Assembly (NCBI GenBank): GCA_022449845.1
Contig: JAKUOE010000005.1
Coordinates: forward strand, 1 to 34,055
Length of the DNA: 34,055 nt
Direction of reading: 5' to 3'
Origin: Candidatus Thalassarchaeum sp.
GTDB taxonomy: Archaea; Thermoplasmatota; Poseidoniia; Poseidoniales; Thalassarchaeaceae
Under the pieces are notes generated by a model that was not told the origin of the DNA, made no database searches, and saw nothing but the letters and a program-made list of their open reading frames with translations. Position 1 is the first letter of the stretch. The number at the start of each line of letters is the position of its first letter. The translations under genes and the position numbers were made by a program. Shown one piece after another: positions 13,832-33,155 of the stretch.

Positions 13832-13850
13832 AATAATTCACCAATTGGAA

Positions 13851-13870
13851 AATCAATTTTTCAATTGATT
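13851..13870 (-). repeat. AT-rich inverted repeat between megasynthase and PPTase
   Basis: AATCAATT-TTTC-AATTGATT has 8-bp arms and a 4-nt spacer, and begins at the megasynthase stop codon. On the minus strand it is followed by TTTTCC. It could attenuate transcription into the PPTase gene or simply be a 3'-end signal. The stem is AT-only apart from one pair, so it is weak. Confidence 0.4.
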
Positions 13871-16800: not shown

Positions 16801-19800
16801 GCAACATCACCAGAGATTGGAGCCGTTGACAGTTGAACAACTTCCTCTTCCACAATGGGTTCAGGCTCGGGAAGAGGGATATCTTCTTGTTTTGAAGGAG
16901 AGGATTTAGGGGGAGAGAATGTGGACCAAGTAGTTCCCTGAACACCACCAATTATTTTCTCATCCGGATTGATATAAGCGACAAGTTGTCGGTTGAGAAT
17001 ACGCAGATCCACATCTCCATCACTCGCTTTACTCGCCCAGATGGCTACGTGTTCCCGATCCACGCGATCGAGGTTCGTAGCCATGCGCTTGACCATCGTG
17101 AACGCCATTTGCGAGCCAAATCCAGCGGCATGTCGAACGACGTACTCAACATCCACAGGACCTCCAGTTGACAGGCGGAGATGGCCCAATTCCGGATCGG
17201 GTTCCTTGAAATTCGCGATGGGGGGGAATTCACCCTGACACAGACCGCGAATCGAGACCGCATCTTCGATTCCAGTTCCCATCGGGTGACCTGTGAATCC
17301 CTTCGTGTTCGTGATGATAATCTCCGATGCGCTGTCACCAAAGGTTCTGCGAAGAGCCTGAATCTCCGCTGATGCCGAGCCCCCACGTGGTGGAGTGGCT
17401 GGTTCATGGGACATGAAGGAGGTTCGGGCGGCGATTGTATGACGATTCAGGCCCCAATTCTCTTCCATTTTCGCGATGAAGGTCTCCAACGAATCCGAGA
17501 CATGGTCAACATCTAGGCGGGTTGGGTGGAAGGCTGAATTGGCAAGATGTGTGCCGAGAAGTTCAGCATAGGGTGTAACCCCACGCTCCATTGCTAAACT
17601 GTGACGTTCGAGGACGAATGCGGCCGCACCCATCCCGAGGAGCATGCCATTTCGACGGGCATCGAAGGGGACACTGACTTCATCGACAACATTGCCCATT
17701 GCATGAGCGCCTGCGGCAGCGAAGCCAGCACCAATCCACGTCATCAATTCATCACTGGTTGAATCATCGGCACTGACGATGATGACTCGGTCGCAACGAC
17801 CTGTAGCCAACCAATCTTCTGCGATGGCGATTGCAGAGGGTGTCGAGGCGCAGGCATTGTTGACGGAAGCATTGGGTCCCCGTGCCCCAATCCATTGAGC
17901 AAATTGCGAATGACCCATGGTGAGAATCTGCAGTAGGAAGCGCCGGTCGAAATTGCCATCCTCATCCGCTCCATTGTTCTGCGCGTGCCGCATCGCTTGA
18001 TCGATTCCAGGGAAGCATGAGGCGAAGAGGACACCGGTACGGTCCCTCTCTGAGTCGGGCAAATGCCAATGTTGAATCAAACGCTTACCGGCTTTGTTAA
18101 TCTGTTCAACAGCCAGCAATGGTAAGCCTGCGTCCTTGAGTGCTTCAAGCCCAGCAGCCAGAGCGAGAGAGGTTGTGATATCCATCGCTTCGACAATCTT
18201 CGGATCCAAGCCATACTGTTCGGCCAAATCGAAGTGGCCCCGCCGCCCTGCTAGTTGAGGAATCAAGGTGAAATCATCACAAGGAACGAATTCGGCAGAA
18301 CCATCGGGGTGTTTGATAATTCGAACTAGATTTCGATCGAGGAGGCGTTGTTTGACGTCATCAGAAAGTTCGGAAATGAAATTCTCTCCACGGATTATCC
18401 GATCCAATGCATCGGGTGAGAATACCTCCTCCATTCCAGGCAATCCAAGGCTGAGTCCACTGAATACATAGGGGTCTCTGCGCCGAGCAGAAAGCGGATC
18501 TTCCGAGGTATGTATTCGCCGGTCGCTGAGGGTCTGAACTGAGATAGAATGGCCTTGTGGAACCTCAGCCAACCATTCGACGAGGCCTGGCAGTGTTGTT
18601 GCATTTGTACTGCCTTTGACTTGGTATTTGGACTGAATTTTCTGATGAATCTCTGATATCTGTACATCATTCAATCCGATTGTAAGCAAATCTGTCGAGC
18701 CGTGAATCATTCGTACAGGGAAGCCACTAACATCAGATACGATTCTTGCAATCGCAGACTCCTTGGACATCCGGTTGGCTTCATCCTGCTCCTCTTCAGT
18801 CATCACTGAAACCGGTGGAGGTGAGGAAGTGGGTGGTGCCGCTGGAATGACATGAGTCGGGGTAGATGTTCGGACACCGGCTCGGAAAGCCTCAGTGAGA
18901 ATGTCACTATTTGCATCCGGAATCTGCGGTATGCGGCCGGATAGCGCATGCAGTGCGAGAGCAGCATGGAAGGAGGCAATGCCGCCAACCTTGGGATGAT
19001 TGGTATTGGCGATAATCTTCGGTCGATCTTCAAATATCTGTTCGGCAAAGAGAGCTAGGGCTCGCTTGGGGCCAACTTCGATGAACATGCGAGCCCCGCC
19101 CTCGTACATCGTCTCCATCTGCTGTGTCCATTCGACGGCGGAAGCCATCTGTGGAGCGAGTTTGGCCAATATTGCTTGCTTGGCACTGCTGCCTGCTGGA
19201 GCGACATTCGGGTACCAACCGCCATCGAAATTCGAGGTGATTGGAATATTCGGCAATCGAATATCCAAACCCTCAAGGAAAGCGCGCAATGGTTCGTTCG
19301 CTGGGGCTACGATTCTGGAATGGAATGCATGACTGGTTTGTAGTTGTACACAGGAGACTCCGGCGTCATCGAAAGCCTTCATCACCCGCTTCATCGGTTC
19401 GGTCTCTCCGGCAATGACGGTCATTTTCGGACTGTTCTTGTTGGCGGCAATGACGTAACCATCTTCTGCTTCCAACACGGCTTCAATCTGTTCATAGGGA
19501 GCGGAGACTGAAGCCATGATTCCAGTGTCCTGGACCTCGACGTTGCCCATCTCAGTACCTCGTGCTGCGACGGCACGAAGAGCCGAGTCGAAATCGAGAA
19601 TGTCTGCAACCATCAGGGCCGCATACTCCCCCAGTGAATGGCCAGCAACCATGTCGGGTTCAAGTCCGTGCGCCTTGAGGAGACGATGGATGCCGAGGTC
19701 GGCCGTGAGCATCGCGGGTTGTGTGTACTCTGTTTGTTTGAGTTTGAATTCTGCATCTTTCTTCTCATCCTCAGTCAGATTCTCTCGAAGCACGAAGGAG

Positions 19801-19985
19801 GACAGAGTTTCACCTTCGAGAACTTCAATCATGGTCTGATCCGCTTCATCCCAAGTCTCTCCAATACAACGATACCGTTTGGAGAGGTCAAGGGTCATGC
19901 CGACATACTGGCTACCCTGCCCTGGATAGAGTTGAGCAACCTTGGCCTGTTCGGGCAATGGTGCAGTGTCGGTAATCATGACCAT
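13869..19985 (-). CDS. Type I fatty-acid/polyketide megasynthase: AT-ACP*-KS-ACP-KR-DH
   Basis: A 2038-residue multidomain enzyme for acyl-chain elongation and reduction. In order: a malonyl-type acyltransferase (about 15-350; GQGSQ, active GHSLGE with Ser117, HAFHS); an ACP-like domain (about 405-475) with Asp440 where the pantetheine Ser belongs; a ketosynthase (about 505-970; Cys712, His860, His900, with HGTGT replaced by HEPATPP); a second ACP (about 1055-1135) with LGIDTVKQAEI, Thr1094 at the Ser position; a ketoreductase (about 1410-1700; GGGSGV, Ser1604, Tyr1617, Asn1621); and a PUFA-synthase-type hot-dog dehydratase (about 1725-2030; His1760 in the FLIDHSIEG segment). The frame continues upstream without interruption to the TAA ending the separate KS gene. 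The start here is the first ATG after that stop. Overall it resembles bacterial PfaA-type synthases. Confidence 0.93.
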   Translation of the reverse strand: MVMITDTAPLPEQAKVAQLYPGQGSQYVGMTLDLSKRYRCIGETWDEADQTMIEVLEGETLSSFVLRENLTEDEKKDAEFKLKQTEYTQPAMLTADLGIHRLLKAHGLEPDMVAGHSLGEYAALMVADILDFDSALRAVAARGTEMGNVEVQDTGIMASVSAPYEQIEAVLEAEDGYVIAANKNSPKMTVIAGETEPMKRVMKAFDDAGVSCVQLQTSHAFHSRIVAPANEPLRAFLEGLDIRLPNIPITSNFDGGWYPNVAPAGSSAKQAILAKLAPQMASAVEWTQQMETMYEGGARMFIEVGPKRALALFAEQIFEDRPKIIANTNHPKVGGIASFHAALALHALSGRIPQIPDANSDILTEAFRAGVRTSTPTHVIPAAPPTSSPPPVSVMTEEEQDEANRMSKESAIARIVSDVSGFPVRMIHGSTDLLTIGLNDVQISEIHQKIQSKYQVKGSTNATTLPGLVEWLAEVPQGHSISVQTLSDRRIHTSEDPLSARRRDPYVFSGLSLGLPGMEEVFSPDALDRIIRGENFISELSDDVKQRLLDRNLVRIIKHPDGSAEFVPCDDFTLIPQLAGRRGHFDLAEQYGLDPKIVEAMDITTSLALAAGLEALKDAGLPLLAVEQINKAGKRLIQHWHLPDSERDRTGVLFASCFPGIDQAMRHAQNNGADEDGNFDRRFLLQILTMGHSQFAQWIGARGPNASVNNACASTPSAIAIAEDWLATGRCDRVIIVSADDSTSDELMTWIGAGFAAAGAHAMGNVVDEVSVPFDARRNGMLLGMGAAAFVLERHSLAMERGVTPYAELLGTHLANSAFHPTRLDVDHVSDSLETFIAKMEENWGLNRHTIAARTSFMSHEPATPPRGGSASAEIQALRRTFGDSASEIIITNTKGFTGHPMGTGIEDAVSIRGLCQGEFPPIANFKEPDPELGHLRLSTGGPVDVEYVVRHAAGFGSQMAFTMVKRMATNLDRVDREHVAIWASKASDGDVDLRILNRQLVAYINPDEKIIGGVQGTTWSTFSPPKSSPSKQEDIPLPEPEPIVEEEVVQLSTAPISGDVAAKVVEVVVKHTGYPEDFIELDQDLEGELGIDTVKQAEIMAELRDFYGLPVDESFVLSEHPTLNHMIAYLGQDESHSDPPESIEAPPIISEPDPPTPSIQPESLGVRRWQVEAEAIPPEANTPLDIDGRVIAVTDDPWGVADTLCHILEAAGIDTVRIMLDPSIVSKIKIEKDGPVDIIRVDPGNHDQLAEVSSHLARIGDVAALLHLAPLRLAGVGWESETQQAHLTSTTHGLFGLLKSLDSHFSSIADGTIMSVSAMDGRHGNAGSRFNALAAGSHGIVKSYAKEQPHLRCRAIDVDPELLSDPTALAHQIWAEAFGRNSPLEVGLSRDGNRWTLCLYEEDLTDEIQSLQNDDVWVISGGGSGVTARCIVGVAEASQNVGATFILLGRTRLDSSIEEWLEDDESTLQARKMELREDMISQSDSGKVTMVEWDREWNKQLRSLEIHRTMRDIHATGNRALYDACDVTNSRSVSKVITAVGKECGTITGLVHGAGLEDSKLVGDKSWQTFSSVISVKIDGWRALVDALGDEIDQLRVLCAFTSIAGRFGNGGQVDYAAANNILDAEMCRIAHHEDAPRAVAIAWSGWSDVGMATRGSVESVFEQAGIEMIPVETGVDLFVQEMLSGGKRRVVVAGALGILDDENCKRAPPQKFPTDTAGALAEPERFPFVDRIITHEPYSEIITECTLSSERFPFLIDHSIEGTPYHPGVMAMEMFAQSSLLLYPMCNLEGFSDVQFGLPIKLMKEEARVRVRAQFSGQDHNSLFIQCHLESDLVNSKGEIFGEPLVHHQAMVRLLKEGAQRDSPMAFTDLPGKGKASFQPSFVYDRFFHGPRFQVHGALIKGVSDGDNLGADGIALLRSQLPNSQLFEEEPVLLESLPLLIEACFQNAGLVAMEVDNLSSLPIGIEECEILKIPSLRDDLRVRSYRRGQESDGITIHDAMVFDRNQKPLVSLRGLRLKGMAPVPEELRFNLNRKEK

Positions 19986-20159
19986 CTGTTTGGCGAGAAA
20001 ATCCCATTTCGAACGATCGTCAATAGACTTCTCAAGTAGATCAAAACGCTTTGCGAGTTGAAACCAATCGCTGGCGACAATTGCGCATCTGACACCTTCA
20101 GCAATGTATCCTTTACTCGCCTGTGGAAGAACGATGGAGAGACGCTTTCCATGAGGGTC
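19986..20159 (-). other. In-frame coding-like linker between a TAA stop and the megasynthase start
   Basis: The frame of the megasynthase stays open for 58 codons upstream of its first ATG, up to the TAA that ends the KS gene. The KS gene is itself in exactly the same frame. The translation contains EGVRCAIVASDWFQLAKRF, which looks like the KS-AT linker of PfaA-type synthases (typically RxAIVAxxxxxLxxKL). It contains no ATG, GTG or TTG start before the ATG at 19991. The stretch therefore reads as former or hidden coding sequence of one KS-AT protein. Confidence 0.7.
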
Positions 20160-21812
20160 TTAATCGAAATTCGAACCACTGAAAAGTTCAGCCCTTATGG
20201 AGGAAAGTTTGGCGGTTAGTGCTTCCAAATCGGGAGCGTTGACCAACAGGACGCCGCCTTCAATCTCCTTCAATTCAGCGTGTGAGAAAGTGGCTGTTGA
20301 TGAGAGTGTAGTTTGCGCAGAAGTCCCCGGGTTCAACCAAGCATTGCGACGGGTGTCGAACTCGTTGGCGAGAAGGGAATGGAAATCTCGATCGTAAGCT
20401 TCCAGTGCACAATGGAAATTCGTCCCTCCAAAACCGAAGGAAGAGACGCCAGCGCGGCGAGGGTGTCCGTTTGGAGCCAACCACGATTTGGGTTCAGTGG
20501 GAACATAGAATGGATTCGTTTCCCAATCGATGTTCTCGTTCGGTGTGGAAAATCCGGCACTTGGAGGAATCGTGCCTGTTTCAACTGCCCGAATCGCCTT
20601 GACAAGGCCGGCAATTCCGGCGGCGGCCTTGAGATGACCGATTTGACTCTTGATTGAACCCACGGCGACGTTGTCGCCCGGAGGTGTGTTGGTAAATGCG
20701 GCAGAGAGACTGGTCAACTCTGTTGCATCACCGACGACTGTGGAGGTCCCATGAGCTTCGATTAATTCGACTGTCGAAGAATCGTAACCAGCCTGCATGT
20801 ATGCCCGACTTACCGCTTGAATCTGGCCGCGGGTGCTCGGTGCAGTGATGCCTTTACCGCGACCATCACTACTCGCACCCACTCCACGGATCACCGCTTG
20901 AATGGAGTCGCCATCACGAATCGCATCGGAGAGTCGTTTCAATGCGAGGGCGCCCGACCCCTCACCCATGACAAAACCGTTCGCCTGAGAATCGAAGGGT
21001 GTTGAATGCGTGGCTGAAAGTGCGCCAATGGCGCTGAATTTTGCAAATGTAGCTGGATCCATGGTTCGATCGCTAGCGCCTGCAATCATCATGTCCACTT
21101 GGCGTGTCTGTAGTAGCCTGCAAGCGTCTAGAATGGCAGCAAAGGTGGATGCACAAGCAGCATCCGTGGAATAATTCGGACCTTGAAGGTCGAGGAGGTT
21201 GGCGACCCTACCAGCCACAACATTCGCGAGTTCGCCTGGCATTGTATCCTCAGTGACAAGGGGGAGGCCGTCGAGAATCGCGTCCTTGAACGCCGCCTTT
21301 CCTTCACTCGGCATCCCTCCCGCCTCGACAGCGTGACGTGCGAACTGATCAGCCCACACACGATGATTGGTCAGATTTCGATTCTCTCCTCCTAGAGCAT
21401 TTGCGAAGATTACACCGGTCCGCTCCCGAGGTAATTCACGGGCTCCTTCACCCATGTATCCTGCATCTTCCAAAGCGGCTGCACTGACGGTGACTGCCCA
21501 CTGTTGTGTTGGATCAATTTGAGGAAGAGAACCAGGGGGGATTCGCCAGCGGCGCCAATCAAATTCAAAATTTTCAACCCATCCACCAATCTTTGAGTAG
21601 GTCTTGTTCTCATCGACATTCTTTGGTCCCCCCTCAACCCAGAAATCAGAAGATACCCATCTGTTTTCGGGAACCTCCTTGAGTGAGACATGAGCAGACA
21701 AGATATTCGCCCAGAATGTTTGAAGATTCGGTGCATCGGGCAACAGAGTCCCGACACCGATTACGGCAATCGGTTCAAACGGATCCTGTGGATGTTCGTC
21801 AGGGATTGTCAA
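20160..21812 (-). CDS. Beta-ketoacyl synthase (PfaA-like KS), in frame with the downstream megasynthase
   Basis: Catalyses decarboxylative condensation of acyl and malonyl units. The 550-residue protein has the complete triad: Cys220 in TDAACASTFAA, His354 in EAHGTST and His393 in GSIKSQIGHLKAAAG. GGTNFHCALE closes the fold. The C-terminal tail (about 500-550) is the beginning of a KS-AT linker and is cut by TAA. The start is 9 nt after FabI, which places it in the same operon. Because the next open frame is in phase, one KS-AT-ACP-KS-ACP-KR-DH polypeptide of about 2647 residues may have existed or may still be made. Confidence 0.93.
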   Translation of the reverse strand: MTIPDEHPQDPFEPIAVIGVGTLLPDAPNLQTFWANILSAHVSLKEVPENRWVSSDFWVEGGPKNVDENKTYSKIGGWVENFEFDWRRWRIPPGSLPQIDPTQQWAVTVSAAALEDAGYMGEGARELPRERTGVIFANALGGENRNLTNHRVWADQFARHAVEAGGMPSEGKAAFKDAILDGLPLVTEDTMPGELANVVAGRVANLLDLQGPNYSTDAACASTFAAILDACRLLQTRQVDMMIAGASDRTMDPATFAKFSAIGALSATHSTPFDSQANGFVMGEGSGALALKRLSDAIRDGDSIQAVIRGVGASSDGRGKGITAPSTRGQIQAVSRAYMQAGYDSSTVELIEAHGTSTVVGDATELTSLSAAFTNTPPGDNVAVGSIKSQIGHLKAAAGIAGLVKAIRAVETGTIPPSAGFSTPNENIDWETNPFYVPTEPKSWLAPNGHPRRAGVSSFGFGGTNFHCALEAYDRDFHSLLANEFDTRRNAWLNPGTSAQTTLSSTATFSHAELKEIEGGVLLVNAPDLEALTAKLSSIRAELFSGSNFD

Positions 21813-21821
21813 TATCTCGCC

Positions 21822-22613
21822 TCAGTCACTGATGCTATCTGGAACCATCGTGCTGGAGTATCCAGCATCGACGTGAATCACTTGTCCTGTCACGCCGGAA
21901 CCTAGCGGGCTTGAAAGCCAAACTGCACAACCGGCAACATCGTCTTGGTTGACATTGCGGCGCAGAGGAGAATTGCGTTCGACATGATCCAATATGTCGT
22001 CGAAACCAGGGATGCCGCTCGCAGCCAAGGTTCGAATCGGACCAGATGAAATGGCGTTGACACGATGGCCGTCCTCACCGACTCGCATCGCCAATTCTCG
22101 AACCCATGCCTCAAGGGCGGCCTTGGCGATGCTCATGACACCATAATTGGGGACATAACGAGTGCTCGCAGCATAGGTGAGGGTGATCGTCGATGAATTC
22201 TCTGCTAGATGGGGCAAGGCATGACGCATGACACGTTGAAGAGAATGGGCGGAAATCGTCATCGCGATATTGAGGGGTTCATCTTCAACGAATAGCATGT
22301 GTCGATCAAAACATTCGCTCGGTGCGAAACCAATCGCATGGATGATGATGTCTGCCTTTGAACCGGGCGCTGCCTTCTGCCATTCCTGGAAAAATTCCGC
22401 TGTTGTCTCTTCAGAACCGACATCGATAGGATAGAATGCCTCGATGGCCGAAAGTTTGTCTTTGAGTTGGAAAACACGGCTCATGAATCGCTTCTGATAT
22501 CCAAGGATGAGTTTGCATCCGGCTTGCGCCAATCGATTGCAAATTGCCCAGGCAATTGAATCCTCAGATGCAACACCAAACACCAGTGCAGTTTTTCCTT
22601 CAAGTTGCAACAT
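21822..22613 (-). CDS. fabI: Enoyl-[ACP] reductase (FabI type)
   Basis: An NADH-dependent reductase of the last step in each fatty-acid elongation cycle. The 263-residue short-chain dehydrogenase has the FabI-specific features: KTALVFGVASEDSIAWAI at the N-terminus, HAIGFAPSE, the catalytic Tyr-x6-Lys in YGVMSIAKAALEA, and SGPIRTLAASGI. Length is normal. It provides the activity missing from the megasynthase, which has no visible enoyl reductase domain. It lies 9 nt upstream of the KS gene. FabI is a bacterial enzyme and rare in archaea, so gene transfer is likely. Confidence 0.95.
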   Translation of the reverse strand: MLQLEGKTALVFGVASEDSIAWAICNRLAQAGCKLILGYQKRFMSRVFQLKDKLSAIEAFYPIDVGSEETTAEFFQEWQKAAPGSKADIIIHAIGFAPSECFDRHMLFVEDEPLNIAMTISAHSLQRVMRHALPHLAENSSTITLTYAASTRYVPNYGVMSIAKAALEAWVRELAMRVGEDGHRVNAISSGPIRTLAASGIPGFDDILDHVERNSPLRRNVNQDDVAGCAVWLSSPLGSGVTGQVIHVDAGYSSTMVPDSISD

Positions 22614-22624
22614 GAAACCACGTT

Positions 22625-22697
22625 CAGCCCTATGGGCTGTGGGCGTCGACAGCCGACGGGTTTTGAGGGTGCCCCTCAGAAGTGACCCTACGGGTCA
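22625..22697. repeat. Cluster of three perfect hairpins (6-bp arms, 3-nt spacer) upstream of fabI
   Basis: Within 73 nt the spacer holds CAGCCC-TAT-GGGCTG (22625-22639), TGAGGG-TGC-CCCTCA (22664-22678) and TGACCC-TAC-GGGTCA (22683-22697, overlapping the stop codon of the upstream TatD gene). A weaker GTCG/CGAC pair lies between. No TATA-like element is seen. The array separates the fatty-acid genes from the upstream genes and may be a terminator, RNA-processing or regulatory element. Confidence 0.6.
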
Positions 22698-23591
22698 AAT
22701 TCCACCATAGAGTGCGCTGGGCCAGATACGGTGTACATGATTCATCAATTCTTCAACTTCATCGGCCCCCTCAATGTCCAGAAGTGCAGAAACTAGGGCA
22801 TGGGTGCGTTTGGGGACTGTTTTGGGTCCAAGTACAGCACCTGGACGGGATGGGTCGTCAAGATAATCCGTCTCCATCGTCCACGTCGAAGTGCAATTTC
22901 GATAGGTCTCTAGAAGAGTGGATACACTGTGTTTGCCCATGCTGACAGAGGAAGAGAGGTCATGTGTGAAATCAACAGCAACGTTTGCAGGAGCATAATG
23001 ATGAATGGCGCGCTGGCGTTGTAATCCAGAACGATCGCAGAGGATGGACAATTCCTCATTGGTTTGGGCCCCAGCATCCTCAACGTGCAATTGTATGGGG
23101 AAACCCGCTTTGGAGGCCATGCGCATGACCGTCTCCAGTTGCTCATTGGCTGCAGACCAAACCTCCTCAGATACTGGATAATGTGGCCGACCAACCTCAC
23201 CCAAAGCAACCGCGTCCCCTTGAGCACAGTATTCCAATGCCAGTGCCACAGAATCGAGGTGAAGTTGTGTGGATGCCTCCATACCCAATGTGTGTATTTG
23301 TTTCTCCCAAACCACAGGGTGAGGACCGAGAATCACTCGGACATCGATGCCCACTTCACGACGGACCGCGGCCGCCATATCCAACGTACCGATGTAAGCT
23401 TGTTTTACTGCATCAAGAGACTCGGGAAGTTCATTTGGAAATCCCGGCTTGTGAACCAAGCAGAGGTGAGTCCCCCCTGCATTGGCAAAGTCCTGCGCTG
23501 CTGCCAGACCACGCCCTCTGCTGTCTAGATGCATGTGGGTATCCCAAATGGGGCCGGTCCAACGGCCCTCGACGATTGTCATGTTCCTCAT
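22695..23591 (-). CDS. TatD-family metal-dependent hydrolase
   Basis: An amidohydrolase-superfamily phosphoesterase or DNase-like enzyme with a TIM barrel. The 298-residue protein shows the metal ligands in order: DTHMHLD (D17, H19, H21), the ALGEVG glutamate, QLHVEDA histidine, RAIHHYAP histidine and METDYLDDPSRP aspartate. The start overlaps the stop of the TBP-like gene (ATGA). Archaeal TatD-like proteins are poorly characterised, and the substrate (DNA, RNA or a small molecule) is unknown. Confidence 0.88.
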   Translation of the reverse strand: MRNMTIVEGRWTGPIWDTHMHLDSRGRGLAAAQDFANAGGTHLCLVHKPGFPNELPESLDAVKQAYIGTLDMAAAVRREVGIDVRVILGPHPVVWEKQIHTLGMEASTQLHLDSVALALEYCAQGDAVALGEVGRPHYPVSEEVWSAANEQLETVMRMASKAGFPIQLHVEDAGAQTNEELSILCDRSGLQRQRAIHHYAPANVAVDFTHDLSSSVSMGKHSVSTLLETYRNCTSTWTMETDYLDDPSRPGAVLGPKTVPKRTHALVSALLDIEGADEVEELMNHVHRIWPSALYGGI

Positions 23592-24103
23592 CCCAGTAGA
23601 TTCTCATCGGAAAGTCGCTGCTTCCATCGACGAGCCGCCATTGAAACCAATTTTCCATGGCGGGCTTCAGTTGCAATACCTCGACCGTTGCGGAACAATA
23701 GCATCTGAATTTCATGGCGTGTGTCATTGATTCTAAGACAATCCAATTCTGCATCCATGACAGCTTCGGGATACAAATCTGGTACACCTTCGAGAGAAAT
23801 GGACGACTCAAAATCGAATGATGCGACCACAGGGCCGACCTCAAAGGACATCCCAGATTCATCCTCACCCATTCGCAAGAGAACCTCTTTTGCCGCAAGA
23901 TGAGCGAGGTCCTGTTTTCGACAACCGTGGACAATGATACGACCATCTTGATCGACCAAGAGGGTTGCACGTGGGGCGACCAGAGAGAGGGTGACATATC
24001 GGCCACTTCGCTTCCCTCCAATCTCATCGACAACCCGCTGTGGGTCGATGGGTGTAGCAGGGGTGAATCGGAACAATTGATTCTCAACGCGTGATTCCGT
24101 CAA
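23588..24103 (-). CDS. Divergent TATA-binding-protein-fold protein
   Basis: A 171-residue protein made of two TBP-like half-repeats. Repeat 1 (about 11-78) includes APRATLLVDQDGRIIVHGCR, compare RTTALIFSSGKMVCTGAK of TBP. Repeat 2 (about 91-163) includes VVASFDFESSISLEGV, compare NIVASCDVKFPIRLEGL, and MLLFRNGRGIATEAR, compare LLIFVSGKVVLTGAK. The DNA-kinking Phe of the strand in repeat 1 appears as Asp51, while Phe137 is kept in repeat 2. The acidic tail of archaeal TBP is missing. It is likely a TBP paralogue or a TBP-fold regulator; whether it binds TATA elements is open. It overlaps both neighbours by four bases. Alignment was by eye. Confidence 0.68.
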   Translation of the reverse strand: MTESRVENQLFRFTPATPIDPQRVVDEIGGKRSGRYVTLSLVAPRATLLVDQDGRIIVHGCRKQDLAHLAAKEVLLRMGEDESGMSFEVGPVVASFDFESSISLEGVPDLYPEAVMDAELDCLRINDTRHEIQMLLFRNGRGIATEARHGKLVSMAARRWKQRLSDENLLG

Positions 24104-24918
24104 CTTCTCTCCTCCTCAACATGTTCTGGTAATGGGGAACTCTCCAGTGCGGAATGGATGTCGGGCATCCAAGCCTGCATGACTGGCACGAGGAGCACAG
24201 GTGTGCCCGTATCATCAACCTGTCCCCCACAAAGTGTTCCCAATGCTCCTCGAAGGCGTGATGCAAGACGCTGGTCTCTTCGTAAACGAAGTTCCTCATT
24301 GAGTACGGATTCCGAACGATACCACCATGCTGCTGCAAGTGCACTGGCCTGAGCGAGACCATGCGCCTTGGCATCATCTCTCTCACAATCGGGTGGCCCC
24401 GTTTGGTGCATGGCCTCACGTAGTGTACGCTTCCAAGCCCGTCCACTGAAGATAGAGCGAGTCAGGTTTCGTAAACGCACCATCTCATCTGCACAATCTT
24501 CGACCCATTCAGTCCATTCTTCATCCTCGGGTTCGACAAAGAATACTGGACGAGTACCTTTGCCCGAGGGGCTCTCAGCTGCCTGCAACAGGCGACGAGG
24601 TTCTGGATCAGGGAAACGACAGGTTTGGATTGACTCGATAGCGGATTGACCCATCATCATTCTCGCCAGTGTTCCACCACTTGCTGAGATAGAATCTCGA
24701 TTAATTCCAGGGGATGCCTTCTCTTGTTCTGCTTGGTCATTCCAAACTTCGGGCTCGTCATCCGGAAGAAGGAAGGCGAGTCCATCCCACTTTCCAACTG
24801 ATCGACGAAGAGAATCCGTCAACACAACGTTGGGCAAGAACGGCCACAGGCGAATGACTCCGCCACAGGGATCCTCCCATTCGACTGGCGACCAACTCAA
24901 GGGCGCCGAATCGGTCAT
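24100..24918 (-). CDS. Hypothetical protein, possibly TraB-like
   Basis: A 272-residue soluble protein. The C-terminal region, with EELRLRRDQRLASRLRGAL then VPVMQAWMPDIHSALE, resembles the end of TraB/GumN-family proteins (ERDxxMAxxLR... VVGxGHxPGI), but the diagnostic His and Gly of that motif are changed. The N-terminal PFLPNVVLTDSLRRSVGKW could match the early strand-helix of the same fold. This is a weak resemblance. The middle (about 60-150) is polar and rich in acidic residues. It lies 9 nt after the giant surface protein gene and overlaps the TBP-like gene (ATGA), so all are probably cotranscribed. Confidence 0.7.
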   Translation of the reverse strand: MTDSAPLSWSPVEWEDPCGGVIRLWPFLPNVVLTDSLRRSVGKWDGLAFLLPDDEPEVWNDQAEQEKASPGINRDSISASGGTLARMMMGQSAIESIQTCRFPDPEPRRLLQAAESPSGKGTRPVFFVEPEDEEWTEWVEDCADEMVRLRNLTRSIFSGRAWKRTLREAMHQTGPPDCERDDAKAHGLAQASALAAAWWYRSESVLNEELRLRRDQRLASRLRGALGTLCGGQVDDTGTPVLLVPVMQAWMPDIHSALESSPLPEHVEEERS

Positions 24919-24927
24919 GGTTCAACC

Positions 24928-27900
24928 TCATTCTTGGCTGGCGAGCCACTCTTCGAGTTGCTCAACATTCCAGCCTTGATCGAAGTAGCCCTGAATCGTC
25001 GCCTCATCCCAGAACGGGAATTTCTCCTTGGCGATGTCCATCGGGCTCTTCGCAGCCGCAGGTGGGCCACGTGAAGCACCAGGTGGACCACGTCGGTCAC
25101 CGGCTCGGGTCGCGGGTGGACCCCGACTTCGCATCGGTTCAACGGCCTGGGCGGCTGGGAGGAAATCATCTTCCTCGATGTATTCGAGTTCATCGTCCTC
25201 AACGGTTCGGTTGAGAACGAGCAGTACGATGACGACAGCGACGATGAGGAGGGCAACGATGCCAGCAATACCAACGAGCAGCATGGTGTTCCCACCTTCA
25301 TCACTTTCAGCGAACTTCGCAACATTGAACGAATCGATAGAAGCGATTTCTTGATTATTCATGTCCAAAATAACGTAACTGACATTGATTGCCGCATTCG
25401 GGAATTGATCCATCGAAATTCGCCAACGTGTATCTTCTCCAGGTTGTACACTGAACGGACAAGTGTAAGTGACTGGGGAACTGGCTTCATCGCCAATCCA
25501 TGTCACGATTTGAATCTCCAGAACACCTTCCTTGTTGCCATCATTCTGGAAGTCAATCAACAGATCAAAGTCTGTCTGAGCCATGGGTTTGTCGACCGAC
25601 ATATCGACCCGACTGATGGTGAACTGTGCAGACTCATACGCCAACTCATAGGTACCTGCACCACTGTTGACTGAGGTTCCAAAGGAACCCGCGCCACCGA
25701 TGGTTTGTCCAGATGAATCATAACCAGTCAACCAGAATTTGACAATCACATTGTCCATGTCCTCAGGAATGGGTTGTGTTGAGGGCCATAGATCGAAACA
25801 AGTGGATGTCGCCCGAATCTGACCTTGTGACGATTCAAGGTACAGTGGAGTGCTTTCCCAACCTTCACCGTCTTCAAATGTGTTCAGATATTCAGTCCAG
25901 TTATACTCGAATCCACCGACTTCCTGTGTCTTATAGAACATCCAGTTCAATGAAACAGAATCCGTATCCATGCCTTGTAATTCGTCAATGAGAACCTCTG
26001 CATCGAGACAATTCATGACCGATGAAGAGATGCTCCCTTCTAACGTCTCACCCGTCACAGAATTCGAAAGATCCCACGACCCGAACACTGTGTCAGGCCT
26101 GTCACCATCGACCTTCACGATGAATGAACGCGATGGGGCAGGCGTATTGTCAACTGCACCATTGGGCAGACCGAGCAATTCCAATGTGTAACTGTACTCA
26201 TTGGTAGCATATGCTGCGGGCACCACCAATTGGAAAGAACCGTTCTCAAAGTCGTATTCGTTCACTTCGACCAGTGCGGGTGAATAACCACTGTCGGGCA
26301 AACCAGCTGGATAGAGAGGGGAGCGAGTGACCTGCAGACTGAGAGGAATCTCGGGGCTGACGAAGATCAAATCATTCATCCCTGCGCTGAACACATATCG
26401 GCCTTCAATGACCAAGATGTCGCCTTGATAGACGAAGCCACCAGATGCTGTGCCGACGCCGTCGGTCGGGAACCCGGAGGTGTCCTCAACAGAGAAAGTC
26501 GTTGTATCGAGTTCAATTCCACTCGAGTACGACCATCGCTGTGGATTTCGAGAGGCACTGATGTGGACCTCGTTGTTGTTCAAATCCTTGTCCTTCATTG
26601 CGATATCTGGTGTCTTCACACCACCGACGTAGCCAATGGGTATAGCCCACTCCATTCGAATTGGTACATCGAGGGTGAATTGCTGTTCGAAGGGTGAAAT
26701 CAAGATATTTCCTTCGCGCGTCAGCATGCGTGGTTTGATTCCTGTATTTTCATAATCATCTAGAATTTCAATCCAGGTGCTTTCAGTCCATGCCGTGTCA
26801 TTCTGTGGTGAATAGAACATCTGGATACAACCCTCTGGGTCGTAGGATGCTCCGGCTTCGTTGCAGATTTGTGGATTGAGGGTGATGGTAATCGTCTCAA
26901 CATCCTGCCAACCGTTGTCATCCTTTCCATCGACCAGCAAGTGATACACGTTGCCAGCGTAAAGGGACCGATTGTTTTCATTCAACATCGTGCCATGCGA
27001 ATCCGAGATTCGGAAGGCTTCGACAAGAGGTGTGCGGCTTTCCATCGCAATGTAGGTGACCGTGTCCGCGTTGATTCCAGGTCCACCGCCATCGATTTGA
27101 TTGCCACCGATGTCTGAACCGGAGACGAATAGACTGACCATCTGAGGTGGATCGATTCCACTGTTGGCATAATCACTGATACATTCACACGGATGATCAA
27201 TGAGGTAGTATGAGGTGTCCGCTTCAGTTTGACGTGCAAGGGTCATCTGCGAATACTCGTTCAGTTGTGCTTCTCGGTCCATCTCGCCCGTATCGGGCGC
27301 AACGTATGAGGGTACACCTGGACAGAGGCCGTCGAGTCCACAGTCATCCGATGCCTCGACCCAATAATTGAGGGTCAGAGTCTCGGGGGCGAGAGGTAGG
27401 TCCTGAGCAGCCACTCGGAATTTCTGGTTGTTACTCGCCTTCACCCAAGTGTCGTCAGTGAGTTCTCGCCAATCGCCCTGCACACTGTACACGGAGATAT
27501 TCATCAGATGAGGTGAGAAGGGGTCCAATGTGATTGTGAATCGAATCGCACAGTCACTGTCTGGATTGAAACTCTCAGGAGGACAGAGCAAATCGCCATC
27601 GGTGTAATTGTGAATCAACAATCGATACTGTTCCACACCAGCCTCTGATGCTGGAAGATTTGGTTGCCATGAATAATCGCCATCGATGGTCGCAGGTGTG
27701 GAATCCACAAACAACCAATCTTCAAACATGATTTCGGATTGGTTCCGCTTCTCCAACTTGACCGTGTAACTGTTCGGATTTGGAGCAACATCCAGATCTT
27801 CGTATCGAACATTGAAGTCCAGTGTAATCGTGTTGCTTGAGAAGGCATTGGTCAAATCAGTCTGTTCAACACCACCTTGGTTGAAGAGGGTGAAGTCGGT

Positions 27901-30807
27901 CATTCCTGCGTCATTCTCAACAGCATTGCCGTAATCGGGTTGGATTAGATTCCCCGCAGGCAGACCACTGACACCCGTGTTGGATATCGCGGATGCGTAC
28001 AGGCGCACGTTGGGAGTATCCTCCCATGTGGGGTTGACTCGGAAGCGCCAGTTGAGTTGCTTGGCACCATCATCTCCATCGGTCGCAAGAGATTGCATGT
28101 ACATGAAGTCTAGATTATCATGGACATCGCTCTCTTCCCAGAAGCTGCCGTTGGATGCATCCCATCGCAATTCCATGTTTCCGTTGGCCGTCTCAAACAG
28201 AAGGCTAGCCCCACCCAAGGTTTGACCTGTGGATGCAGCGACAGAGTGCGTGGTCACAATCTCAATGATGTCACCATTCGGGTACATTCCCGTGATTCCA
28301 CCGTCACCATAGGTTGAATCGTAACCACTCGTGGTCGAGATGGATAGAGAGGACAAGGAGATTGAACCACCCGAGCCACCGACGATTCGCATCGGGACAA
28401 TCACGTTTCCAGTGGCGCCTCCACTGCTTGCGAGTGCGACACCTTGATTCAGTTCACGTGCGATATTGTTGGAACCGCTGATTGCACGTTCCCAGTCGTA
28501 AATGATGTCGAGATCACGGAATGTGATACTCCCACCGCCCGAAGACGGTGCGTCGATACTCAAACGGAACAAACACCATTCATTGCCATATTGGTCAATC
28601 CAAGCCACCGGCACCAATGGGTTGTCGAGTAGGCTCTGGATGTTGTCCTGAATCGATGCTAGAGGGCTCTGGGGGTAGGGTATGAGTATAGGACCTTCGT
28701 CGATTGAACCCAGACTCACTTCCTCAGTACCACTGAGAAGAGACAAATCGAAGGCACCGATTCCATTATTCTCAAAATTCAATTCTGCATAATGTACAGT
28801 CGCGCCCTTGGGGAGGAGGAAGGGGGCACCTTGACCTTGATTATTGGTACCGAGACTGATTGTACGATTGGGTGAACCTTCATTCACACCATTGACAACC
28901 CCCGTTCGGAACATGTCCTGGCGACCGAAGCTACCGAACGCTGGATCGGTCATCCCCCATTCGATGTCGCTATCTGCCGCAACATCGAGTGTGATACCAC
29001 GCGAGTGGTGGGCAAAGCGGTATTCAACATGGAATGAGTAAACCTCACACATGGATGTGTAATTCGCCAAAACACCTACCATGAAACTCGGGGCTGAGAG
29101 TTCTGACCACGTATCGTTGGCCAGTTGGATGGAAGACTCATCAGCATTCAGACTCATTCCCATCAAGAAATTGGGACCGCCACAATTGTCCACGATGACG
29201 GGCTTCATGGCAACAACAGGCATTGAGAAATCAGTCCGAACCACAGGATCTGGGGATACGATAGAACCGTCGTGAATCGCCGATGAAATCATCACATACG
29301 AGCCTTCACTCATGGCTGATGTCCATTTATCACCACTGTACATCCCTCCATCCCAGAACACGCCATCCGTGTTGCGGAAATTGGTTCCAATGATTGTACC
29401 CAATTGGAATCCATACAATATCGGAGTCGACAGACGAGCCGAACCAGAACCGAAAGTGAACTTGAAATCAATCAGTGGGTAAGTATCTGCATTGATATCC
29501 CACAATTCGATGAGGCTCCCTTGGAGATTCGTCATCGCGTCACCATTTCGGTCGATGACAACATTCCCTGTTCCTGCCTCAAGCACATCAACACCGAAAT
29601 CAGCCGATGCGGATTTTTGGAGTTCAAGATTGAGGAGGCCGTATCCATCCGGGAACCCAACTTGACCAGAGGATTGAGGGGCAAAGGAACTCATGATGAC
29701 GTGGCCCTGAGCAGGGAGTGGGTCACCGACACGGACGCCATCGATATACCAACCAGCATTCATCATCTCCTCAGGGAATGCACCCTGTCGAGGATTAACT
29801 TCGTGGATGAAGAGCAATTTTACGAAGCGACCAGCATGTGTCGAAAGGTCGATGCGGATGTCAGACCATCCACTTGGAGAGTTGGAAGTGGTCGAACCAT
29901 TTCCTCCGAGGACATAAGCACCGGCGCCAGGGCCATTGGTCCCAAGGTAATCACATCGATTGGTGGGGACTTGGTTGACAGATGTACCCAATTGGTACAT
30001 GCCATCGCCTACAGAGACTCCGGTGGTGGCTCCGACATCGATGGGTGCGAAAACCGCATTCTGGAAATCGACATCGTTCGTAGAATTCTGTACGGCAACA
30101 TAGGCACAATCATCGTAGTAGTACGTTTGTGAACCCTCAGATGCCTCACGGTAGAACAGAGAATGGAAACTCTGGAAGGAAAGATCCGCCTTACCGGGGT
30201 GAACGAAGAAGGAGGCACTGGTGAGAACCATCTCAAATTGGCCATCGGGAAGACTTGCAGTGTAATCTGGATTTTCAAAATCCGTACCCCAACACCAATC
30301 ACCGACTCCACAACCCGTTGATAGAACGTTGTTGTCTTGGTGATCATGTGCCCAATTTGCAATCAGAGGCTGAATTCCTTGATCGGGGCCAGCAGACCAG
30401 CCCTCTGGATTCGCTTCAAAATCAGCGTTGAAACCTTGACTGGTCAGTTTCAGGTATTCTTGGTCTACAGTGAAATCGATTCCAGAAGAGAACTGAGTCA
30501 TCCCTCCATTGTAAAGTGGATTCCAAATCTCACCATTGGCGACCAGTGAACTGTCAATGACCTGAACGTCATCATGTTCAGCATAATCGGTGCCTACAAT
30601 GAAGCCGGCGGCATTGACCGTTTCACCGGCTGGCATACTGATGCCAGCCGTCAAGTCATCGCCCCAAGTTCCTTGATCACGGAGTTCAACATCCACTTCG
30701 GAATCGCCATTTGCAAATGTGCTAATCGTAGCCGCATGAACCAAGGTGGTAGAGAATACCATCAAGCAAATCATGGCCAACGATAGTGTGCGCGTTCGGG
30801 TTATCAT
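24928..30807 (-). CDS. Giant secreted, C-terminally anchored surface protein
   Basis: A 1959-residue protein with a Sec-type signal peptide (MITRTRTLSLAMICLMVF, cleavage probably after VHA). The long acidic ectodomain is rich in beta-type Asp/Asn/Gly/Ser/Thr sequence. One segment, SDIRIDLSTHAGRFVKLLF ending in GWYIDGVRVGD (about residue 320-360), resembles a carbohydrate-binding or MAM-like jelly roll. A single membrane helix at about 1842-1865 is followed by a cytoplasmic tail of 94 residues with an acidic stretch, three RGPP repeats and a compact helical end, FPFWDEATIQGYFDQGW...EEWL. It probably forms part of the cell envelope or binds particulate polymers. There is no catalytic motif that could be recognised. 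Length is extreme for an archaeal single-domain-anchored protein. Confidence 0.9.
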   Translation of the reverse strand: MITRTRTLSLAMICLMVFSTTLVHAATISTFANGDSEVDVELRDQGTWGDDLTAGISMPAGETVNAAGFIVGTDYAEHDDVQVIDSSLVANGEIWNPLYNGGMTQFSSGIDFTVDQEYLKLTSQGFNADFEANPEGWSAGPDQGIQPLIANWAHDHQDNNVLSTGCGVGDWCWGTDFENPDYTASLPDGQFEMVLTSASFFVHPGKADLSFQSFHSLFYREASEGSQTYYYDDCAYVAVQNSTNDVDFQNAVFAPIDVGATTGVSVGDGMYQLGTSVNQVPTNRCDYLGTNGPGAGAYVLGGNGSTTSNSPSGWSDIRIDLSTHAGRFVKLLFIHEVNPRQGAFPEEMMNAGWYIDGVRVGDPLPAQGHVIMSSFAPQSSGQVGFPDGYGLLNLELQKSASADFGVDVLEAGTGNVVIDRNGDAMTNLQGSLIELWDINADTYPLIDFKFTFGSGSARLSTPILYGFQLGTIIGTNFRNTDGVFWDGGMYSGDKWTSAMSEGSYVMISSAIHDGSIVSPDPVVRTDFSMPVVAMKPVIVDNCGGPNFLMGMSLNADESSIQLANDTWSELSAPSFMVGVLANYTSMCEVYSFHVEYRFAHHSRGITLDVAADSDIEWGMTDPAFGSFGRQDMFRTGVVNGVNEGSPNRTISLGTNNQGQGAPFLLPKGATVHYAELNFENNGIGAFDLSLLSGTEEVSLGSIDEGPILIPYPQSPLASIQDNIQSLLDNPLVPVAWIDQYGNEWCLFRLSIDAPSSGGGSITFRDLDIIYDWERAISGSNNIARELNQGVALASSGGATGNVIVPMRIVGGSGGSISLSSLSISTTSGYDSTYGDGGITGMYPNGDIIEIVTTHSVAASTGQTLGGASLLFETANGNMELRWDASNGSFWEESDVHDNLDFMYMQSLATDGDDGAKQLNWRFRVNPTWEDTPNVRLYASAISNTGVSGLPAGNLIQPDYGNAVENDAGMTDFTLFNQGGVEQTDLTNAFSSNTITLDFNVRYEDLDVAPNPNSYTVKLEKRNQSEIMFEDWLFVDSTPATIDGDYSWQPNLPASEAGVEQYRLLIHNYTDGDLLCPPESFNPDSDCAIRFTITLDPFSPHLMNISVYSVQGDWRELTDDTWVKASNNQKFRVAAQDLPLAPETLTLNYWVEASDDCGLDGLCPGVPSYVAPDTGEMDREAQLNEYSQMTLARQTEADTSYYLIDHPCECISDYANSGIDPPQMVSLFVSGSDIGGNQIDGGGPGINADTVTYIAMESRTPLVEAFRISDSHGTMLNENNRSLYAGNVYHLLVDGKDDNGWQDVETITITLNPQICNEAGASYDPEGCIQMFYSPQNDTAWTESTWIEILDDYENTGIKPRMLTREGNILISPFEQQFTLDVPIRMEWAIPIGYVGGVKTPDIAMKDKDLNNNEVHISASRNPQRWSYSSGIELDTTTFSVEDTSGFPTDGVGTASGGFVYQGDILVIEGRYVFSAGMNDLIFVSPEIPLSLQVTRSPLYPAGLPDSGYSPALVEVNEYDFENGSFQLVVPAAYATNEYSYTLELLGLPNGAVDNTPAPSRSFIVKVDGDRPDTVFGSWDLSNSVTGETLEGSISSSVMNCLDAEVLIDELQGMDTDSVSLNWMFYKTQEVGGFEYNWTEYLNTFEDGEGWESTPLYLESSQGQIRATSTCFDLWPSTQPIPEDMDNVIVKFWLTGYDSSGQTIGGAGSFGTSVNSGAGTYELAYESAQFTISRVDMSVDKPMAQTDFDLLIDFQNDGNKEGVLEIQIVTWIGDEASSPVTYTCPFSVQPGEDTRWRISMDQFPNAAINVSYVILDMNNQEIASIDSFNVAKFAESDEGGNTMLLVGIAGIVALLIVAVVIVLLVLNRTVEDDELEYIEEDDFLPAAQAVEPMRSRGPPATRAGDRRGPPGASRGPPAAAKSPMDIAKEKFPFWDEATIQGYFDQGWNVEQLEEWLASQE

Positions 30808-32171: not shown

Positions 32172-33155
32172 ATGCCAGTATTGAACGTCGCCTTCGTTGG
32201 TTCAGAAGAGATGGCCAGAACATTGGCAAAGAAAGGGGATGTGCGAGATATCGAATCCTATGTTCACAAGGAAATCATTGATGGTCAAACACGAATCTTC
32301 TCGTTGTTGAGACCATTGCGACACCCTGAGAGGCTGCGACCTTTGTTGAGTGTACTCAATGTGGCCAAAGCGGGAATTGTCGAGATATCCAGGGTCGATG
32401 CGGCTCTTGGAGAAGTTTTGGTTGCTTTCGGGTCCGCGAATATTCAAGACGGGCACGCCATAATTTCTCCAGATGAAGGAGAATGGATTGACCCGCAACA
32501 GGTGAGAATGATTCTCGACCAAGCCGGACTTGAGAAATGGAATCTACACGAAGAGATTCCAGACGAGCATACCCTTCGTGATTCCTTGCTGTCAAATCTA
32601 CAGACAGGCGCGGAAAATGCACCACTCGTCATCCCAATCGATCAGCATTTCAATGTCAAAGGGGTTGGATTGGTGGCGATTGGGTACGTGCAAGCAGGAA
32701 CTGTGTCCAAACATGATGAGATTCACGTTCTCCCGGCTCAAGAAAATGGAATTGCACGAAGTCTCCAAGTCATGGATGACGATGTCGAACAGAGTATCGC
32801 GGGTGATCGGGTCGGTGTTGCACTCCGAAATCTGAGAGAAGAGGCCCTCCATCGTGGATGCATCCTGACCCATATTGATGCAGGGGCGCTCACTCGCCAC
32901 AATCACTCAACATTCATGCTTCAGAGGGCCCCGTTTCAAAAGCGTGAACTATCGAAAGGGGACATCGTTCATGCGGCTGTCGACCTGCAGTTCCAAGTCG
33001 GACGGATTGTCGGAATCGATGGAGGCAATTTCACAGTTGAATGGGAACAACCCCTCTGGATACAGAATCGTGACTCTGCGCCAGTAATCATCGCCCAATT
33101 GGATGCGGAGAATATGCGAATAATGGGTGTTGCCCACAGCATCGCGCCCGCGTGA
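32172..33155 (+). CDS. EF-Tu/SelB-like translation-factor paralogue without a P-loop
   Basis: A 327-residue protein laid out as G-like domain, EF-Tu domain II and domain III. The start, LNVAFVGSEEMARTLAKKGD, is where GTPases carry GxxxxGK(S/T), but no such motif is present. Later, DQHFNVKGVGLVAIGYVQAG with DEIHVLP and AGDRVGVALRN are typical of domain II (compare FxIxGxGTVxxGxVxxG). The C-terminal part matches a third barrel. Similar short EF-Tu-like proteins exist in methanogens. The loss of nucleotide-binding residues suggests an RNA- or ribosome-binding role without GTP hydrolysis. It follows the thioesterase gene by 34 nt. Confidence 0.78.
   Translation: MPVLNVAFVGSEEMARTLAKKGDVRDIESYVHKEIIDGQTRIFSLLRPLRHPERLRPLLSVLNVAKAGIVEISRVDAALGEVLVAFGSANIQDGHAIISPDEGEWIDPQQVRMILDQAGLEKWNLHEEIPDEHTLRDSLLSNLQTGAENAPLVIPIDQHFNVKGVGLVAIGYVQAGTVSKHDEIHVLPAQENGIARSLQVMDDDVEQSIAGDRVGVALRNLREEALHRGCILTHIDAGALTRHNHSTFMLQRAPFQKRELSKGDIVHAAVDLQFQVGRIVGIDGGNFTVEWEQPLWIQNRDSAPVIIAQLDAENMRIMGVAHSIAPA

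What the first reader, a model, noticed from the sequence alone, without database searches (positions are those of the whole stretch)
23588..24103. Divergent TBP-fold protein in an operon with a TatD hydrolase
Both TBP half-repeats are recognisable, but a Phe important for DNA kinking is Asp in the first, the length is short and the usual acidic tail is missing. The genome probably carries a normal TBP elsewhere, so this may be a promoter-specific factor or a TBP-fold protein with another partner.
Basis: partly seen in the sequence, partly recalled or inferred. Interest (0 to 1): 0.7.

Follow-up and report, generated by a model that had tools for sequence, protein, structure and literature searches.

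The report
Second, divergent TBP in marine archaea
Marine Group II archaea carry, besides their normal TATA-binding protein, a second one that has lost most of the residues used to bend DNA and to hold the usual partner TFB, sits where relatives keep their normal TBP gene, and is always encoded next to the same unknown protein, so a core transcription factor seems to have been remodelled for another job.

Summary
Window 23588-24103 (-) encodes a 171-aa two-lobed TBP fold: Pfam TBP above its cut-off, AlphaFold pLDDT 93.6, TM 0.84 to human TBP. A canonical TBP lies elsewhere in the genome, so this is a paralogue ("TBPL"). It is single-copy in nearly all Marine Group II genomes (35 of 36 that are at least 90% complete), absent elsewhere in the phylum, and always flanked by the same two genes: UP272, an unknown protein with the same distribution, and a TatD-type hydrolase (56 of 56 loci). 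Both N-lobe kinking Phe are gone (to Gly34 and Asp/Glu51), one of two C-lobe Phe is gone, and the Glu that contacts TFB is lost. In at least 19 other Thermoplasmatota from nine families the canonical tbp sits directly upstream of the same tatD gene, so TBPL appears to occupy the ancestral tbp slot. TBPL evolves like UP272 (37% and 33% identity between MGII families; TBP 85%). Best reading: a TRF2/TLF-like TBP paralogue working through UP272 rather than TATA and TFB; the function itself is inferred. New variant of a known kind.

The parts
23588..24103 (-). TBPL: divergent two-lobed TBP paralogue, 171 aa, TTG start
23846..24103 (-). TBPL N-lobe (residues 1-86): FPG stirrup segment shortened, both kinking Phe lost, new conserved concave residues R12, T47, D/E51, H59
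23600..23845 (-). TBPL C-lobe (residues 87-168): Phe/Trp137 kept at the L5.1 position, F190 equivalent is Leu120
23951..23953 (-). Codon of Asp51, equivalent to yeast TBP Phe116 (N.L5.1); Asp/Glu in 55 of 56 orthologues
   Evidence: mapping from HMM alignment; numbering from PMC7221094
24002..24004 (-). Codon of Gly34, equivalent to yeast TBP Phe99; Gly/Ser in 56 of 56
23927..23929 (-). Codon of His59, invariant in 56 of 56; replaces the DNA-contacting Thr124 of yeast TBP
24068..24070 (-). Codon of Arg12, 53 of 56; replaces the DNA-contacting Thr73 of yeast TBP
23693..23695 (-). Codon of Phe137, equivalent to yeast Phe207 (C.L5.1); Phe or Trp in 56 of 56
23747..23758 (-). Residues 116-119 (MDAE), C-terminal stirrup where TBP has the EPEL that docks TFB; Glu not kept
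24100..24918 (-). UP272: 272-aa protein of unknown family, Marine Group II only, first gene of the conserved triad; TTGA overlap with TBPL
22695..23591 (-). TatD-type metal-dependent hydrolase with all six metal ligands (H19, H21, E132, H169, H198, D242); ATGA overlap with TBPL
24928..30807 (-). Large 1959-aa protein upstream; neighbour in many but not all MGII genomes, so probably not part of the unit

Best explanation
TBPL is an ancient paralogue of the general archaeal TATA-binding protein, fixed in the whole order of Marine Group II archaea (Poseidoniales). It sits in the ancestral tbp slot upstream of a TatD-type hydrolase gene, while the working canonical TBP is encoded elsewhere. SHOWN (by computation): two-lobed TBP saddle; loss of both N-lobe kinking Phe and of the F190 equivalent; loss of the TFB-docking Glu; a new conserved concave patch (R12, T47, D/E51, H59); one copy per genome; invariable linkage to UP272. 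INFERRED: it no longer kinks TATA boxes from both sides nor docks TFB in the standard way, and forms an obligate complex with UP272. MOST LIKELY MECHANISM (inferred, about 0.4): like metazoan TLF/TRF2, it acts through its protein partner rather than through TATA recognition. The UP272-TBPL complex contacts DNA weakly or non-canonically, through the C-lobe aromatic and the remodelled N-lobe, and tunes transcription of particular genes in parallel to the canonical TBP-TFB system. TatD is an inherited operon member that may or may not belong to the same process.
For: TBP fold and homology. Canonical TBP with all hallmark residues in own and related genomes. Order-wide single copy: 56 of 59 relatives; 35 of 36 MGII genomes at least 90% complete; scores of 179-266 bits in MGII against about 31 or less in any other Thermoplasmatota, where the hits are ordinary TBPs. 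UP272 has the same range and no match outside MGII. Triad intact in 56 of 56 loci while outer flanks change; gaps mostly -4 to +17 nt. Canonical tbp directly upstream of the same tatD in at least 19 non-MGII genomes of nine families, all same strand; in ten of them it is the only TBP. Rates: TBPL 37%, UP272 33%, TatD 44%, canonical TBP 85%, canonical TFB 91% identity between the two MGII families; TBPL-UP272 distances correlate after control for the other genes (0.58), TBPL-TFBL do not (0.08). Concave N-lobe is more conserved than average (entropy 1.28 against 1.75). TLF precedent: 40-45% identity among animals against 80% for TBP, acts through TFIIA (PMC3142196).
Against: No physical or functional data. 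Linked, similarly evolving genes in the same genomes give correlated distances without contact. UP272 has no known family, so a transcription role for the complex is not indicated by it; its invariant D, R, E, W residues could equally mark an enzyme. An Asp at the DNA face argues against tight minor-groove binding by the N-lobe. pTM 0.74 leaves the relative orientation of the lobes somewhat open. The positional-orthologue argument assumes no later reinsertion next to tatD; the tree cannot place TBPL because of its long branch.
Confidence: 0.5

Rival explanations
1. TBPL is the duplex-binding subunit of a nucleic-acid processing or repair complex with UP272 and the TatD hydrolase. The saddle holds DNA or an RNA/DNA hybrid, as the TBP-like domain of RNase H3 does, and TatD trims it.
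For: Three-gene unit with overlapping or closely spaced genes in all 54 measured loci; TatD keeps all metal ligands; RNase H3 uses a TBP-like domain to hold hybrid (PMC4132731 and PMC7221094); UP272 has enzyme-like invariant charged residues.
Against: tbp-tatD linkage is inherited: canonical TBPs sit next to the same tatD in other Thermoplasmatota, so the linkage alone says little. No DUF3378/RNase H3 match. TBPL-TatD distances show no partial correlation (-0.03).
Confidence: 0.25
2. TBPL pairs with the divergent second TFB of the same genomes (TFBL) to form an orthogonal initiation module for a subset of promoters.
For: Every examined MGII genome but one (G042) has a divergent TFB, with Zn-ribbon and both cyclin repeats, beside TBPL; its recognition helix is changed from EVTIRNRYKEL to EVTLRGLLRIL. 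Viral TBP/TFIIB pairs show that orthogonal pairs exist (PMC7221094).
Against: TFBL keeps the Arg that meets Glu C.L3.2 of canonical TBP, which TBPL lacks, so TFBL more likely uses canonical TBP. No partial distance correlation (0.08). TFBL is not linked to the TBPL locus. The sister family f3 has three TFBs without TBPL.
Confidence: 0.13
3. TBPL is a TBP antagonist: it dimerises with canonical TBP through the concave face, or competes for other initiation factors, and lowers general initiation.
For: TBPs can crystallise as dimers (PDB 1vok dimer is among the fold hits); the concave N-lobe is specifically conserved.
Against: No direct evidence; the invariable UP272 partner is left unexplained.
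Confidence: 0.07
4. TBPL is a decaying former TBP kept only because of its place in the operon.
For: Fast evolution and loss of the canonical contacts.
Against: Intact frames in essentially all genomes, invariant residues (P44, H59, L76, G79, G90, G140) over 30-91% identity, retained in streamlined 1.3-2.2 Mb genomes.
Confidence: 0.02

Closest known systems
Canonical archaeal TBP (PF00352), e.g. Pyrococcus woesei TBP, PDB 1ais
   Same: Two-lobed saddle, about 18% identity in structural alignment, E-N pair on the first strand, C-lobe aromatic at L5.1
   Different: Both N-lobe Phe and the F190 equivalent lost, FPG loop of N-lobe shortened, TFB-docking Glu lost, new R12/D51/H59 patch, much faster evolution
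Metazoan TBP-like factor TLF/TRF2/TBPL1 (PMC3142196, PMC7221094)
   Same: Paralogue beside a canonical TBP; evolves much faster than TBP; N.L5.1 Phe replaced; probably relies on a partner protein
   Different: TBPL1 has Trp at N.L5.1, here it is Asp/Glu; TLF binds TFIIA, for which no archaeal counterpart was sought here; TBPL has lost the TFB contact; independent origin
Additional TBPs of haloarchaea (PMC2121645, PMC7289017)
   Same: More than one TBP in an archaeon, proposed promoter specificity
   Different: Those are described as alternative TBPs that combine with several TFBs; TBPL has lost the residues for that. I did not align the haloarchaeal proteins here
TBP-like domain of RNase H3 (PMC4132731)
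   Same: TBP-related fold used outside transcription initiation
   Different: Single lobe fused to an RNase H domain; TBPL is two-lobed, stand-alone, with no DUF3378 match
TatD-related DNases (PF01026)
   Same: The downstream gene has the PF01026 domain and all six metal ligands
   Different: Only weak match to the bacterial TatD model TIGR00010; substrate unknown

Membership tests
General archaeal TBP | Two-lobed TBP saddle fold | tested here: met
   AlphaFold pLDDT 93.6, Foldseek TM 0.84 to human TBP
General archaeal TBP | Match to PF00352 above the curated cut-off | tested here: met
   31.4 bits against 22.9; 34 of 34 members hit
General archaeal TBP | Phe at N.L5.1 (yeast F116) and yeast F99 for the N-lobe kink | tested here: not met
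   D/E51 in 55 of 56, G/S34 in 56 of 56
General archaeal TBP | Phe pair of the C-lobe (yeast F190, F207) | tested here: not met
   F/W137 kept, F190 is Leu120 in 46 of 56; one of two
General archaeal TBP | Glu at C.L3.2 and C.L3.4 that dock TFB | tested here: not met
   Residue 116 is mostly hydrophobic; residue 118 is Glu in 22 of 56, Ala in the window
General archaeal TBP | Binds and bends TATA DNA, recruits TFB | not testable with these tools
   needs EMSA and in vitro transcription
TBP-related factor (TLF/TRF2-like paralogue, functional class) | Coexists with a canonical TBP | tested here: met
TBP-related factor (TLF/TRF2-like paralogue, functional class) | Evolves much faster than TBP of the same genomes | tested here: met
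   37% against 85% identity
TBP-related factor (TLF/TRF2-like paralogue, functional class) | Acts on transcription through a partner protein | not testable with these tools
   UP272 is the candidate partner, by linkage and rates only
RNase H3-type single-lobe TBP domain | Single TBP lobe, DUF3378 match, fused nuclease | tested here: not met
   Two lobes, no DUF3378 hit at E up to 10, stand-alone ORF
TatD-related DNase (downstream gene) | PF01026 domain with metal ligands HxH, E, H, H, D | tested here: met
   E=1.6e-22; H19, H21, E132, H169, H198, D242 invariant
TraB/PrgY family (UP272 considered) | TraB fold | tested here: inconclusive
   Best Foldseek hit 7w5z chain E, probability 0.98, E=0.009, TM 0.46, a Tetrahymena complex IV entry; that complex contains a TraB-family subunit (PMC10060162), but I could not confirm that it is this chain
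TraB/PrgY family (UP272 considered) | Profile similarity and GTxH/GxGH motifs | tested here: not met
   hhalign probability 2% or less; scores not better than shuffled sequences; motifs absent

The most novel reading that the evidence does not exclude
An entire archaeal order has converted the gene at its ancestral tbp locus into a TBP-fold protein with a wholly different, dedicated partner (UP272) and no TATA/TFB function, either as an archaeal TLF-like regulatory system independent of TFB or as a TBP-derived protein that has left transcription for nucleic-acid metabolism.
Probability: 0.45. Interest if true: 0.8.

Novelty: new variant of a known kind. Interest (0 to 1): 0.62.

Why it matters
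TBP is among the most conserved proteins of archaea and eukaryotes. The extra archaeal TBPs discussed in the papers read here are variants that combine with TFBs. An order-wide paralogue that has lost the DNA-kinking and TFB-docking residues, keeps the saddle, and has its own partner would show that archaea, like animals with TLF/TRF2, evolved TBP-fold factors outside the TBP-TFB scheme. Marine Group II is abundant in the surface ocean and essentially uncultured (general knowledge), so a core gene of unknown function there is also of ecological interest. The tbp-tatD linkage found on the way gives a testable history: the gene at the ancestral locus changed, and the working TBP sits elsewhere.

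Tried and rejected
(1) TBPL as the only TBP: rejected, canonical TBP at G000:C205. (2) Chance similarity or another fold: rejected. (3) TatD linkage as evidence of a new functional pair: weakened, because canonical tbp-tatD pairs exist in nine other families. (4) UP272 as a TraB relative: fold hint only, no profile support. (5) TFBL as the partner: considered, not favoured. (6) Viral, phage or defence origin: no relative in IMG/VR by exact-word scan with the window protein, none in phage records, no PADLOC or PHROGs hit; the viral scan reaches close relatives only. (7) Large upstream protein as part of the unit: it is absent next to the triad in several genera; it is not detectably homologous to the large protein near tatD in other lineages. 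(8) Phylogeny: TBPL and MGII TBP are each one group (100/100), but the long branch prevents placing the origin of TBPL. (11) Suspected intein in one canonical TBP (G017): no intein or other Pfam domain in the insert.

Full report
WHAT IS THERE. The ORF at 23588-24103 on the minus strand (171 aa, TTG start) is real and correctly placed. It matches Pfam TBP at 31.4 bits (cut-off 22.9, E=1.7e-7) in two stretches. Thirty-four orthologues all match TBP. A profile of the family finds only TBP chains in the PDB at E below 0.001 (best 9.7e-12). The AlphaFold model (pLDDT 93.6, pTM 0.74) is a complete two-lobed saddle, and Foldseek gives TBPs for its first 44 places, TM 0.84 to human TBP. I call it TBPL.

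CANONICAL TBP. The same genome has an ordinary TBP on another contig (G000:C205:4857-5441), and so do the related genomes. Those proteins keep FPG and LMF/LIF in both lobes and YEPEQFPG in the C-lobe.

DISTRIBUTION. Relatives in public records are named Candidatus Thalassarchaeaceae, Candidatus Poseidoniales and Marine Group II. TBPL is found once per genome in 56 of 59 relatives. Among MGII genomes at least 90% complete, 35 of 36 have it (counted; the exception, G258, has 6% contamination). MGII scores are 179-266 bits; nothing else in the phylum exceeds about 31 bits, and those hits are ordinary TBPs. The sister family f3 of the same class has only its ordinary TBP. UP272 has the same range: present through MGII, no match outside; in G055, which seems to lack TBPL, UP272 lies at a contig end, so the absence is probably an assembly gap.

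RESIDUES. Mapping by the HMM alignments and numbering of PMC7221094, with the yeast TBP sequence and its DNA-contact residues from general knowledge; counts over 56 orthologous loci (some close or duplicate genomes are included): yeast F99 is Gly/Ser34 (56 of 56); F116 is Asp/Glu51 (55); F190 is Leu120 (46); F207 is Phe/Trp137 (56). N69 is Asn8 (44), N159 is Pro91 (45), T73 is Arg12 (53), T124 is His59 (56). The TFB-docking Glu (yeast E186, E188; human E284, E286) correspond to residues 116 (mostly hydrophobic) and 118 (Glu in 22, Ala in the window). PMC7221094 reports Phe at L5.1 in over 90% of archaeal and eukaryotic sequences, Tyr or His in bacteria and Trp in TBPL1; an acidic residue there is not described in the passages I read. 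The concave N-lobe positions are better conserved than the average (entropy 1.28 against 1.75), the C-lobe concave positions are not (1.68). Net charge is -3 on average, against -15 for canonical MGII TBP.

OPERON. UP272 (24100-24918), TBPL and the TatD-type gene (22695-23591) overlap by four bases at both joints in the window (TTGA, ATGA; read). The three genes lie together, same strand and order, in all 56 loci; gaps are mostly -4 to +17 nt. Outer neighbours change between genera: the polyketide-type cluster and the 1959-aa protein are absent from several. The TatD protein keeps all metal ligands. UP272 has no family, a confident model (pLDDT 93.8), invariant D16-P17, P103-D104-P105, R217, R221, R223-G224 and E265, and a weak fold resemblance to one chain of Tetrahymena complex IV, which contains a TraB-family subunit. 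Profile comparison with MGII TraB proteins gave no support, so I leave UP272 unassigned.

ANCESTRAL LOCUS. Searching the same TatD family in the phylum and TBP showed that at least 19 of 78 non-MGII genomes with both genes listed have the canonical tbp within 3 kb upstream of this tatD, all on the same strand. They belong to nine families (f4, f6, f21, f23, f30, f37, f38, f42, f43). Ten of these genomes have only that TBP. The lists were truncated, so 19 is a lower bound. Two unlinked single-copy genes in a 2-Mb genome would be expected this close in well under 1% of genomes (my estimate). TBPL thus occupies the slot of the general TBP. The simplest history is a duplication with transfer of the working gene elsewhere and remodelling of the copy at the old place; the tree does not contradict or prove this, because the TBPL branch is long.

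RATES AND PARTNERS. Between the two MGII families mean identity is 85% for TBP, 91% for TFB, 51% for the divergent TFB, 44% for TatD, 37% for TBPL and 33% for UP272. TBPL distances follow UP272 distances after control for the other genes (0.58), not those of TatD (-0.03) or the divergent TFB (0.08). This is suggestive only: 91 non-independent pairs from 14 genomes. The divergent TFB keeps its Zn-ribbon, both repeats and the Arg that meets TBP, while Thr of the PRT motif varies and the recognition helix differs; it looks fit to work with the canonical TBP.

INTERPRETATION. TBPL fails the residue tests for a general TBP but keeps the fold, so 'it is a TBP-family paralogue' stands and 'it works as a general TBP' is unlikely. 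The best analogue is TLF/TRF2 of animals, which also evolves fast beside a slow TBP (40-45% against 80% identity) and acts through a partner (PMC3142196). I therefore propose an obligate UP272-TBPL complex (about 0.7) acting on transcription without TATA kinking or standard TFB docking (about 0.4 for the whole mechanism). The main rival is a nucleic-acid processing complex with TatD. The steps from 'partner' onward are inference.

LIMITS. The genomes are metagenome assemblies, the window's own 81% complete. No experiment or expression data were available. Phyla outside Thermoplasmatota were searched only by exact-word scan with the window protein, which reaches close relatives.

Noticed in passing
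Non-MGII Thermoplasmatota loci L175-L179, L189, L190: Canonical tbp directly upstream of a TatD-type hydrolase gene on the same strand in at least 19 genomes of nine families; one paper search showed no description of this linkage.
   Followed up: yes
L223 (G000:C198) and L224-L238: Divergent second TFB in nearly every examined MGII genome, with altered recognition helix (EVTLRGLLRIL) and variable Thr of the PRT motif.
   Followed up: partly
L056, L060 (G017:C152:1402-3069): Canonical TBP with about 370 residues inserted between the lobes in one open frame; no Pfam domain in the insert. Real insertion or misassembly not resolved.
   Followed up: partly
L184-L187 and canonical MGII TBPs: Canonical MGII TBP carries a lineage-specific insertion (YPEDYDG...PRK) after the first strand of the C-lobe, of very different length among genera.
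   Followed up: no
window 13070-22613 (-): Polyketide/polyunsaturated-fatty-acid-like cluster: AT-KS-ACP-KR protein (2038 aa), KS (550 aa), enoyl reductase-type SDR and phosphopantetheinyl transferase, next to the triad in many but not all MGII genera.
   Followed up: partly
window 24928-30807 (-): 1959-aa protein with signal peptide-like start, C-terminal transmembrane segment and Pro/Arg-rich tail; no Pfam domain.
   Followed up: no
window 2002-3504 (-): Radical SAM protein with the HMPTM-type N-terminal zinc ribbon (PF23545).
   Followed up: no
window 32172-33155 (+): EF-Tu domain 2-like protein without a detected GTPase domain.
   Followed up: no
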